Assembly (NCBI GenBank): GCA_947628855.1
Contig: CANRBM010000005.1
Span: 1-45,246 of the forward strand
From: an uncultured Clostridia bacterium
GTDB lineage: Bacteria; Bacillota; Clostridia; Christensenellales; CAG-917
DNA length: 45,246 nucleotides
Direction: 5' to 3'
The notes beneath the pieces are model-generated. The model saw only the letters and a list, made by a program, of their open reading frames with translations. It was not told the origin of the DNA and searched no databases. The position numbers and the translations under genes were made by a program. Below are positions 32,553 through 36,870 of this stretch, piece after piece. How positions within the stretch are numbered: position 1 is the stretch's first letter; every line of letters starts with the position of its first letter.

Positions 32553-32574
32553 GGCTGTCGTTTGACAGCCGTTC
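32553..32574 (+). terminator. Hairpin terminator
   Basis: GGCTGTC-gttt-GACAGCC then T-rich tract (gttcgtttaatttt). Confidence 0.6.
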
Positions 32575-32654
32575 GTTTAATTTTCGTCGTCGTCCAAATC
32601 GTTGAAGTATTCTCGGTCGAAAAACTCCGACATTGAATTTTGAATGTAATTGAT

Positions 32655-33366
32655 TCAGTCCGGATCATAAATTATTACATTACGATTTTGCTTGTCGTAT
32701 TCGAATTTGGCTTTTTCTTGCCAATTCAGATTTTTTGTCCACTCATAGGCGGTCGGAAGTATATATTTTATATTGCCTTTCATCTCGTCAAACGGCTCGT
32801 CATAACAAATGATAGCGCTTGGTTTGATGACTTCCAGCATCTTGTTATATCCGTACATAAACGGGCCTTTGTCGTGTTCTCTATAATATGTGCATACGGC
32901 AACGATGGATCCTTCTTCTATTCCGTCAAAGCAGAATTCAAAACTCCGCTCATCGCCCCATGCAACGGTAGGGATAACTTTTGCGCCACGGCTTTGCCAA
33001 TACGCCCCGCACCAACGATTTTTAAAAACGCTGTGTATTTGTAGCGCCAACGGCATATCAATGAACAGACTGAAATCCGGCGAGAACAGAGCGTGATATT
33101 GTTTCAAACGCTCAAACGAATCGTCCGCTTTGGTGTAAACCTTTTCAAACAACCAATCGTGGGTAAAAAAGTGAACGGTTTTATGCTTATTCTGTTCATC
33201 GTCGTTTTTTGTATCCACGAAGCTTATCGGCTCGATTTTGTCAACGTCTATGTCTTGCTTTTTGATCAAAGGCGTTATATTTGCCTACGACCTTAAATTC
33301 GTTTCGCACAAGCTCTTTTTTGTGTTGCGCTTTTTCTTTTTCATATTCCGATGAAAAAAATCTCAT
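32655..33366 (-). pseudogene. DUF4417 domain-containing protein, disrupted by an apparent frameshift near 33270
   Basis: Downstream frame: IKKQDIDVDKIEPISFVDTKNDDEQNKHKTVHFFTHDWLFEKVY...FSLFIDMPLALQIHSVFKNRWCGAYWQSRGAKVIPTVAWGDERSFEFCFDGIEEGSIVAV. Upstream frame starts at 33366 with good SD (gaggtggatttATG): MRFFSSEYEKEKAQHKKELVRNEFKVVGKYN. Joined they form one family-like protein. Confidence 0.75.
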
Positions 33367-33375
33367 AAATCCACC

Positions 33376-33837
33376 TCATCTGCAAATCATATAGTCCGCG
33401 TTTGTCACATCGTCCCATATGTCCTTGAGCAATTTGCCGCCTATATGCGCTTTTTGTTTGAACTCCTCAAAGTCGTCAAAATATTGCCATTTGGCGGGAT
33501 CTTTTTCGAAATATTCGCCCAATTCAATAATGTTTCTTGACCATAACACCCCATAAAGCATGCCGTCGTATTCAAACTCCATTTCCTTGTAATATCTCAA
33601 GCCTGCAATGAAGTCGTCCAAAGACGGTTTGAGAGGCAAGCCCTGCTTATACAGCGACTTTGCCTTGTTGTATGACACCATATTCGGGTATGCGACCGTA
33701 TCAGGATATTTAAGGCAAGTTTCACTCTGATGCCAACCGCAATGTTTGCAATCCCCATGCCCGAAGTTGTTAACATCCACAAGCTGCCCGCACACGGCGC
33801 AGGGTATTACAGTAAATTTAGCTTTATAATCCGACAT
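33376..33837 (-). CDS. Zn-ribbon (CPCC-like) protein, putative immunity protein, copy 2
   Basis: 153 aa; CAVCGQLVDVNNFGHGDCKHCGWHQSE; tandem paralog of 33847..34308 at protein and DNA level. Confidence 0.7.
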   Translation of the reverse strand: MSDYKAKFTVIPCAVCGQLVDVNNFGHGDCKHCGWHQSETCLKYPDTVAYPNMVSYNKAKSLYKQGLPLKPSLDDFIAGLRYYKEMEFEYDGMLYGVLWSRNIIELGEYFEKDPAKWQYFDDFEEFKQKAHIGGKLLKDIWDDVTNADYMICR

Positions 33838-33846
33838 AAAGTCACC

Positions 33847-34308
33847 TCATCTGCACATCATATAGTCTGCGTTTGTCACATCGTCCCATATGTCCTTGAG
33901 CAATTTTCCGCCTATATGCGCTTTTTGTTTGAACTCCTCAAAGTTGTCAAAATATTGCCATTTGGCGGGATCTTTTTCGAAATATTCGCCCAATTCAATA
34001 ATGTTTCTTGACCATAACACCCCATAAAGGACGCCTAAATATTCAAACTCCATTTCTTTATAAAAATCCAGTCCTTCTATGAAGTCGTCCAAAGACGGTT
34101 TGAGTGGCAATCCCTGCTTATACAGCGTCTTTGCCTTGTTGAATGAAACCATGTTTGGATATGCGACCATATCTGAATATTCAAGGCAGATCTCGCTCTG
34201 ATGCCAGCCGCAATGTTTGCATTTTCCTTGCCCGAAGTTGTCCACGTCTACAAGCTGCCCGCACACGGCGCAGGGTATTACAGTAAATTTAGCTTTATAA
34301 TCCGACAT
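33847..34308 (-). CDS. Zn-ribbon (CPCC-like) protein, putative immunity protein, copy 1
   Basis: 153 aa from ATG at 34308 (SD ggaggattggatATG); CAVCGQLVDVDNFGQGKCKHCGWHQSE; overlaps upstream cargo gene. Confidence 0.7.
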   Translation of the reverse strand: MSDYKAKFTVIPCAVCGQLVDVDNFGQGKCKHCGWHQSEICLEYSDMVAYPNMVSFNKAKTLYKQGLPLKPSLDDFIEGLDFYKEMEFEYLGVLYGVLWSRNIIELGEYFEKDPAKWQYFDNFEEFKQKAHIGGKLLKDIWDDVTNADYMMCR

Positions 34309-34607
34309 ATCCAATCCTCCAATTTGTCCTCCATTTCATAGAGCTTGATATCTTCTCCTCTGGGTTTTTGACCTAATTTTACTTTTGACCAATCCCACAT
34401 ATGTATGTGTGGAAAAACATGATTTTCGCCACTATGTGTGAAATCGATGTTTAGCCATGCATAACCATTGGCGTCATATAGCCTAATCTGTTTCAGCGTA
34501 TTGTCCGGTTTATAGAGACAATATTTAGAGTTCGGCTGACCTTTGCCTTCAAGATGTTCTGCCCACACCTCAAATGTTCCGCCGCTCATTGCGCCTCCTG
34601 CACCCAT
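34278..34607 (-). CDS. Orphan polymorphic-toxin-like C-terminal cargo domain (109 aa)
   Basis: SD AAGGAGG 8 nt before ATG at 34607; MGAGGAMSGGTFEVWAEHLEGKGQPNSKYCLYKPDNTLKQIRLYDANGYAWLNIDFTHSGENHVFPHIHMWDWSKVK... resembles PNS...LKQ.R.YD..G....DIDF.H......FPH.H.WDW cargo domains; overlaps immunity-like gene by about 31 nt. Confidence 0.55.
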   Translation of the reverse strand: MGAGGAMSGGTFEVWAEHLEGKGQPNSKYCLYKPDNTLKQIRLYDANGYAWLNIDFTHSGENHVFPHIHMWDWSKVKLGQKPRGEDIKLYEMEDKLEDWICRIIKLNLL

Positions 34608-34873
34608 TATAAATGCCTCCTTATGATTTTTCAAGAATTTGAAAACGAGTTTTCTCTTTCGCTCTTGCTATATCACGACAAACCTCAAAAATGCAAGATT
34701 TTATGACGCAGATTTTAAAAAATTTCCGAATTTAGCAAATTTTCTCTCGCGGACTCTCTCGGTATCGGCTTGTCTTTGCACTGTCGAGTGCGAAAATTTT
34801 TTATTGGCTTTTGGATATTCACACATAAGGAGTCGAGAGGGATCGCGGCGGCGTAAATTTTCAAATGTTTTTG

Positions 34874-36325: not shown

Positions 36326-36700
36326 GCTCGGACAGAGGTTAATAGAGTTCAAGGACGAAAAGCGTTAGTATCTCAGACAAACTTATTGAAATGACCCGCC
36401 CTCACTGCGTACGTGGGTATATCCCGCTCGCTCCGCGGAGTCGCTCGGACAGGGCGTACGGCGGGTATGAGGTAGCTCGGACAGAGGGTGCGTTAAACGC
36501 TCGGACTAGGGGATTCCTCGACGTTGCTCGGAATGACATTATAAATATTCTGTCATGTTGAGCGAAGTCGAAACATCCCCCTGTTATACCCCACAAAATC
36601 ACTGCGTAATTTTGCGGGGACCCCGATGTCGCTCAGACAAAGGTTGCGTTGATCACTCATACAAAACGTCCATCAATATCAAGCTATCACGCAGGAGTTC
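36326..36700. repeat. Composite intergenic repeat region with GCTCGGAC motifs and palindromes
   Basis: GCTCGGAC at 36326, 36443, 36475, 36499; variants GCTCGGAA at 36536 and GCTCAGAC at 36631; related sequence at 45116. Confidence 0.75.
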
Positions 36701-36717
36701 ATACCATACACACAACC

Positions 36718-36763
36718 AAAACGCGCGAACTAGTGACAAAAGTCACGACGTTCGCGCGTTTTT
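36718..36763. terminator. Bidirectional terminator-like hairpin
   Basis: AAAACGCGCGAAC ... GTTCGCGCGTTTT, perfect 13-bp outer stem with inner GTGAC-aaaa-GTCAC. Confidence 0.65.
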
Positions 36764-36870
36764 AGCTTGGAGTGCAGGGGCTGAAAGCCCTTGCCGAGGT
36801 GCAGGGCTCGAAGCCCTGCGTGGGGCGACGAAGTCCCTTGCCGGGGAGTGGGGCGGAGCCCCACAAGAAT
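36764..36870. repeat. GC-rich hairpin-array element B (related to element A at 26900-26967)
   Basis: Shares CGCGTTTTTAGCTTGG at left end and CCTTGCCGGGGAGTGGGGCGGAGCCCCACAA at right end with 26900-26967. Confidence 0.7.

What the first reader, a model, noticed from the sequence alone, without database searches (positions are those of the whole stretch)
32655..34607. Orphan toxin-cargo / immunity-like island with tandem immunity paralogs and DUF4417
Four minus-strand genes with tight SD-coupled junctions form an AT-richer island between housekeeping genes. First is a 109-aa free-standing cargo-like domain (PNS...LKQIRLYD..GYAWLNIDFTHSGENHVFPHIHMWDW) without any delivery domain but with its own strong SD. 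Next are two CxxC...CxxC Zn-ribbon proteins, the first overlapping the cargo gene by about 31 nt. Last is a DUF4417 gene. From memory such cargo domains cap RHS/LXG or phage-head toxins and CPCC-like proteins occur as immunity partners. As an autonomous operon this could be a captured cassette acting as a new toxin-antitoxin or anti-phage module, or a prophage relic.
Basis: partly seen in the sequence, partly recalled or inferred. Interest (0 to 1): 0.65.

Follow-up and report, generated by a model that had tools for sequence, protein, structure and literature searches.

The report
Mobile toxin–immunity cassette with phage-type partner
A gut Clostridia genome carries a small mobile gene cassette, probably a toxin with two copies of its antidote plus a partner gene (DUF4417) that in this genome has a 2-base frameshift; the same partner gene sits next to many unrelated toxin-like genes in phages, which suggests an undescribed way of handling such toxins.

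Summary
The island is real: P1 (109 aa), two CPCC Zn-ribbon paralogs, then DUF4417, on the minus strand between housekeeping genes. One correction: DUF4417 starts at ATG 33366 and has a 2-bp deletion near 33272, so 32655-33269 is only its C-terminal piece. P1 is homologous to the C-terminal domain of RHS polymorphic toxins. Its conserved partner is the CPCC protein's second domain. The cassette is a mobile unit of about 2.1 kb: an empty site exists, the same unit sits at other loci in sister species, and it carries its own promoter. A related operon is patchy across the order (P1 in 32 of 396 genomes). Profile comparison shows that P1 and CPCC each have homologs paired in other toxin/immunity-like pairs. 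The wider result is about DUF4417. In phages and gut Clostridia it precedes a gene bearing a Gly-rich (M)GGRG tag and a variable, often polymorphic-toxin, domain (65 of 80 viral loci downstream, 1 of 42 upstream). I found no description of this link. Most likely reading: an orphan polymorphic toxin-immunity cassette of a DUF4417-linked, phage-derived class. Toxicity, immunity and DUF4417's role are inferred, not shown.

The parts
34665..34705 (-). Conserved leader/promoter-like element (TTGCAT-N18-TATAGC with TG before the second hexamer)
   Evidence: Occurs once in each of the 6 genus genomes that carry the close form of the cassette and in none of 14 others; conserved at different loci. Promoter role inferred.
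34278..34607 (-). P1: free-standing toxin-like domain, 109 aa, start MGAGGAMSGG, motif PHxHxW
   Evidence: Homologous to C-terminal domain of RHS toxins; no Pfam/NCBIfam/PDB match above cut-off; predicted all-beta (on natural homolog L038)
33847..34308 (-). CPCC1: CxxC..CxxC Zn-ribbon plus second domain, probable immunity protein; overlaps P1 by 31 nt
   Evidence: PF14206 borderline (24.3 bits vs 24.5; 25.2); phrog_3711 for second domain
33376..33837 (-). CPCC2: tandem paralog of CPCC1
   Evidence: PF14206 24.0 bits; dS to sister species 0.39 against 0.04-0.09 for neighbours, so exchanged by recombination
33241..33366 (-). DUF4417 N-terminal piece, up to and past the frameshift (to its premature stop)
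   Evidence: Frame open in L014, L015, L016, L020
33270..33273 (-). Site of 2-bp deletion that frameshifts DUF4417
   Evidence: AACGCCTTTG here, AACATGCCTTTG in L014
32655..33269 (-). DUF4417 C-terminal piece
   Evidence: PF14386 E=4.7e-49
32637..32649 (-). Distal edge of the mobile unit (TTACATTCAAAAT)
   Evidence: Homology between non-syntenic copies stops here
32553..32570 (-). Intrinsic-terminator-like hairpin after the operon
   Evidence: consensus match only

Best explanation
A mobile, chromosomally located orphan polymorphic toxin-immunity cassette. P1 is a toxin domain of the kind found at the C-terminus of RHS proteins, here with its own start and a Gly-rich N-terminus. CPCC1 and CPCC2 are tandem immunity proteins that neutralise P1 or its variants, most likely by direct binding through their second domain. 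DUF4417 is the constant accessory of a phage-linked class of Gly-tagged effectors, probably acting on their trafficking, loading or maturation; in this genome it is frameshifted, so the cassette is at present a toxin-immunity pair that may serve as an immunity reservoir or addiction module. Shown: homology, linkage, mobility, constraint, frameshift. Inferred: toxicity, binding, delivery, DUF4417's role.
For: P1 homologs sit C-terminal to RHS core domains (TIGR03696 in L027, L033, L049, L050). Free-standing P1 is nearly always followed by a CPCC two-domain protein, in 1-3 copies, with DUF4417 adjacent; 32 of 396 genomes of the order have P1. P1 and CPCC are fused in L038 and L150; DUF4417 and CPCC in L041, L048, L140, L141, L143, L145. 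Co-homologous pairs: P1 vs the GGRGTFASG family (hhalign 94.6%, 6.5e-8), CPCC second domain vs that family's neighbour (83.9%, 7.7e-6) and vs the planctomycete neighbour of P1 (75.5%, 2.4e-5); cross-pairs and shuffled decoys negative. Same position filled by other toxins next to DUF4417: Ntox50 (3.6e-26) and, in Mycobacterium phage Luchador, a papain-fold toxin domain (6e-12) followed by an annotated 'immunity protein'. Mobility.
Against: No toxicity or binding data. RHS-linked P1 genes are followed by other small genes, not CPCC. The related phage KYG family (DUF4417 neighbour) has no obvious immunity gene in DO134P1 or phiNJ2, so not every relative need be a toxin. The fusion model shows no confident interface (pTM 0.45).
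Confidence: 0.66

Rival explanations
1. Self-contained toxin-antitoxin or abortive-infection module: P1 is held inactive by CPCC in the same cell and released when a phage attacks; DUF4417 (or HNH in other clades) senses or amplifies.
For: Free-standing genes with own promoter; compact operon; HTH-ImmA/IrrE-DUF4417-toxin-immunity order in L135, L137, L167, L173, L177; patchy distribution.
Against: No PADLOC match; neighbours are mainly housekeeping, not defence islands; DUF4417 lost or broken in some copies while P1-CPCC stay.
Confidence: 0.2
2. Phage-derived non-toxic protein pair: P1 belongs to a phage superfamily (KYG, TFASG) with a role in virion assembly or early infection, and CPCC is a chaperone or partner.
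For: Profile homology to DUF4417-adjacent phage proteins encoded just upstream of terminase, some without immunity gene.
Against: P1 as the C-terminal domain of RHS proteins is a classic toxin position; tandem, recombining CPCC copies look like immunity arrays.
Confidence: 0.1
3. Decaying prophage remnant with no present function.
For: DUF4417 frameshift here; DUF4417/CPCC fragments elsewhere (L138, L139).
Against: No phage gene among the ten flanking proteins scanned; purifying selection on all genes; own promoter and repeated gain at different loci.
Confidence: 0.04

Closest known systems
RHS / CDI orphan toxin-immunity modules (PMC3150448, PMC7043789)
   Same: Toxin domain without delivery part, next to an immunity gene; same domain as RHS C-termini
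   Different: Not next to a parent rhs gene; own start, promoter and Gly-rich N-terminus; a third constant gene, DUF4417
DUF4417-toxin-immunity trio of Mycobacterium phages (Luchador gp1-gp3, Piro94)
   Same: DUF4417, then Gly-tagged toxin, then immunity protein
   Different: Phage genome, different toxin domain (Gln_amidase papain fold), gene order DUF4417 first
MuF polymorphic toxins of temperate phages (PMC5576092)
   Same: Toxin domains linked to the phage packaging region of Firmicutes phages
   Different: No MuF domain; separate small Gly-tagged gene with DUF4417 instead
Cys_rich_CPCC immunity protein, PDB 8EY3/8EY4
   Same: Same Zn-ribbon (E=9e-4); called a toxin-immunity protein in PMC13068155
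   Different: Here about twice as long, with a second domain (phrog_3711-like)

Membership tests
Polymorphic toxin C-terminal domain (RHS class) | Domain occurs at the C-terminus after an RHS core | tested here: met
   Met for homologs L027, L033, L049, L050; the window protein itself is free-standing
Polymorphic toxin-immunity pair | Adjacent small immunity gene, often in tandem | tested here: met
   CPCC adjacent in nearly all free-standing loci, 1-3 copies
Polymorphic toxin-immunity pair | Toxicity alone and rescue by partner | not testable with these tools
   needs experiment
Cys_rich_CPCC (PF14206) | Score over curated cut-off | tested here: inconclusive
   24.3 and 24.0 bits vs 24.5; 25.2 and 24.8; four Cys invariant
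DUF4417 (PF14386) | Score over curated cut-off | tested here: met
   166.8 bits vs 28.9, but gene frameshifted in this genome
Ntox24 (PF15529) | Score over curated cut-off | tested here: not met
   12.5 bits vs 24; not filed as member
MuF phage toxin | MuF domain in the toxin protein | tested here: not met
   No Pfam domain in P1
Prophage / remnant | Phage structural or integration genes nearby | tested here: not met
   Ten flanking proteins scanned: GH127-like, PH, Fe-ADH, DAGK, CTP synthase etc.
Known anti-phage defence system (PADLOC) | Match to a defence model | tested here: not met
   P1, CPCC1, DUF4417: none
Type II toxin-antitoxin system | Antitoxin neutralises toxin in the same cell and autoregulates | not tested
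   No data

The most novel reading that the evidence does not exclude
DUF4417 defines an undescribed class of polymorphic effectors: proteins bearing a short Gly-rich (M)GGRG-type tag are handled by DUF4417 (a TIM-barrel-like, possibly TGT/DpdA-like protein) for loading into phage particles or for maturation, with exchangeable toxin and immunity genes; the window cassette is a chromosomal descendant.
Probability: 0.4. Interest if true: 0.82.

Novelty: new variant of a known kind. Interest (0 to 1): 0.57.

Why it matters
DUF4417 has no known function (only three papers in the library mention it, none with a function). Its tight linkage to Gly-tagged genes with very different effector domains, from mycobacteriophages to gut Clostridia, makes a question testable: how do phages carry or control free-standing toxin domains that lack a delivery module? 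It also gives a genetic handle (the DUF4417 neighbour) for finding new toxin and immunity families, of which P1 and the CPCC second domain are two without a Pfam entry.

Tried and rejected
Ntox24 membership of P1: weak hits only; the RHS-linked P1 domains do not hit it either, and too few Ntox24 loci were found for a profile test. PDB by sequence for P1, the CPCC second domain and DUF4417: nothing convincing. PDB by fold for DUF4417 and for the P1-CPCC fusion: nothing below E=0.03. Prophage relic: rejected on flanks. Mobile-element ends as repeats: the shared edge at 34665-34705 looks like a promoter, not an inverted repeat. Mixed P1/CPCC alignments with misplaced Zn ribbons or short tails were discarded. 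In one search protein 9 had a mistyped tail; its null result is not used.

Full report
Observation. The minus strand of 32655-34607 holds P1 (109 aa), two CPCC paralogs and DUF4417, in an AT-rich patch (GC about 0.41 against 0.5-0.6). P1 and CPCC1 overlap by 31 nt. The coordinates of the fourth gene need correction: DUF4417 begins at ATG 33366 with its own SD. In the window it has lost two bases (AACGCCTTTG against AACATGCCTTTG in the sister species), so the reading frame breaks near 33272 and 32655-33269 is only the C-terminal piece. That piece shows the same constraint as the intact copies (dN/dS 0.04 against the sister), so the loss is recent or is an assembly error.

Recurrence. P1 has homologs in 9 of 43 genomes of the family and in 32 of 396 of the order. 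The free-standing homologs are almost always followed by a two-domain CPCC protein, with DUF4417 down- or upstream. Other arrangements exist: DUF4417-HNH-P1-CPCC, P1 followed by a DUF4417-CPCC fusion protein (L041, L048, L140, L141, L143, L145), and P1-CPCC fused in one frame (L038, L150). The fused ORFs are natural readings of those contigs, not constructs.

P1 is a toxin-type domain. A scan of about 85,000 species genomes found P1 at the C-terminus of long RHS/YD-repeat proteins in L027, L028, L031, L033, L049, L050, L057, L059 and L069. The RHS core domain was confirmed by TIGR03696 in the four that were scanned. These are followed by other small genes, not CPCC. P1 has no Pfam, NCBIfam or PDB family above cut-off. 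The modelled domain is all-beta. The conserved residues are PNS, QxR, D, and PHxHxW.

CPCC as partner. The Zn ribbon (four invariant Cys) matches the CPCC proteins 8EY3/8EY4 at E about 1e-3; one paper calls 8EY4 an E. coli toxin-immunity protein (PMC13068155). The second half matches phrog_3711. CPCC copies number one to three. CPCC2 of the window has dS 0.39 to the sister species, while neighbouring genes have 0.04-0.09, so this copy was exchanged.

Co-homologous pairs. Three toxin-like families (P1; GGRGTFASG; KYGTEY) are related by profile comparison: P1 to GGRGTFASG 94.6% (E 6.5e-8), P1 to KYGTEY 77% (2e-5), KYGTEY to GGRGTFASG 96% (2.5e-9). The CPCC second domain is related to the gene next to GGRGTFASG (84%, 7.7e-6) and to the gene next to P1 in planctomycete contigs, which lacks the ribbon (75.5%, 2.4e-5). 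Thirty column-shuffled decoys per pair never did better, and four toxin-versus-immunity cross-pairs were negative. The best reading is that toxin and immunity have diversified together.

Mobility. In G013 the same flanking genes (ORF282 and Fe-ADH) are separated by only about 260 bp without the island, and a close copy sits elsewhere in that genome (L020). Homology between non-syntenic copies runs from about 32637 to a conserved leader at 34665-34705, which has promoter-like hexamers (TTGCAT, 18 nt, TATAGC). The leader occurs once in each of six genus genomes that carry the close form and in none of the other 14. In L020 and L017 a gene weakly similar to DUF6883 (E=0.009) and a 166-aa gene lie at the P1 position or between P1 and CPCC, consistent with cargo exchange. 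Flanks in the window and in other genomes are housekeeping genes.

DUF4417 as the constant gene. In other genomes of the family and order, DUF4417 is followed by different small effectors: Ntox50 (3.6e-26), GGRGTFASG, zincin- and MPN-like proteins read by eye, and P1. Upstream there is often HTH plus an ImmA/IrrE-like protein (L135, L137, L167, L173, L177; read by eye). In phages the same holds: Luchador and Piro94 (DUF4417, 'VIP2-like toxin', 'immunity protein'; the Luchador toxin is Gln_amidase papain fold, 6e-12), Dorea phage DO134P1, Streptococcus phage phiNJ2, Roseburia phage Jekyll (next to terminase) and a Christensenellales phage (among tail genes). In 80 viral loci the gene after DUF4417 carries a G[GAST]RG motif near its start in 65 cases; the gene before it does in 1 of 42 (Fisher p=1e-18). 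By unrelated downstream protein clusters it is 30 of 41. Exceptions exist: Javan394, some ParB-type fusions and Rubrobacter plasmids show no such gene. The chromosomal cassettes carry a degenerate form (MGAGG.., MGMCKPSGG..). DUF4417 is modelled with high confidence (pLDDT 89, pTM 0.81), but it has no PDB neighbour below E=0.03. The only named viral neighbours near significance are queuine tRNA-ribosyltransferase-like proteins (E 0.016, prob 0.98), so a TGT-like TIM barrel is a lead, not a result.

Mechanism. Most likely P1 acts on a cytosolic target and is kept in check by CPCC binding; DUF4417 acts on the Gly-tagged effector before or during transfer. With DUF4417 frameshifted, this genome's copy would work only as a toxin-immunity pair. 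The steps 'P1 is toxic', 'CPCC binds it' and 'DUF4417 handles the tag' are inferences.

Literature. The open library has three papers with DUF4417: a ParB-CTPase fold survey that finds DUF4417 fused to ParB in prophages, an S. pyogenes phage table, and a termite-gut phage genome. A search for GGRG with phage gave nothing relevant among the papers listed. MuF toxins (PMC5576092) and orphan rhs modules (PMC3150448, PMC7043789) are the nearest described kinds. Absence from this library is not proof of novelty.

Noticed in passing
Viral loci L204-L283; phage loci L192-L199: DUF4417 is followed by GGRG-tagged genes with many unrelated effector domains (papain-like, ART-, MPN- and zincin-like).
   Followed up: yes
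L020:667-2000; L017:5770-6500: A DUF6883-like gene and a 166-aa gene (weak KOW/DUF4926 hits) occupy the P1 slot or lie between P1 and CPCC.
   Followed up: partly
G000:C9:19948-20079 (L139): A second, degraded DUF4417 fragment (44 residues matched) lies elsewhere in the window's own genome.
   Followed up: partly
window 36395-36801: Interspersed repeat with several copies near the same flanks in L014 and L127.
   Followed up: no
L060:5087-5914 and relatives: A 275-aa gene with weak HNH match (E=0.027) lies between DUF4417 and P1 in another clade of the order.
   Followed up: partly
L172:3124-3510; L174:3-881: By eye, a serine-recombinase-like and a Mob-relaxase-like reading frame adjoin two cassettes, suggesting carriage on integrative elements.
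   Followed up: no
L052, L067: Planctomycete contigs encode P1 at the C-terminus of about 240-aa proteins with another N-terminal domain, in tandem with immunity-like genes.
   Followed up: partly
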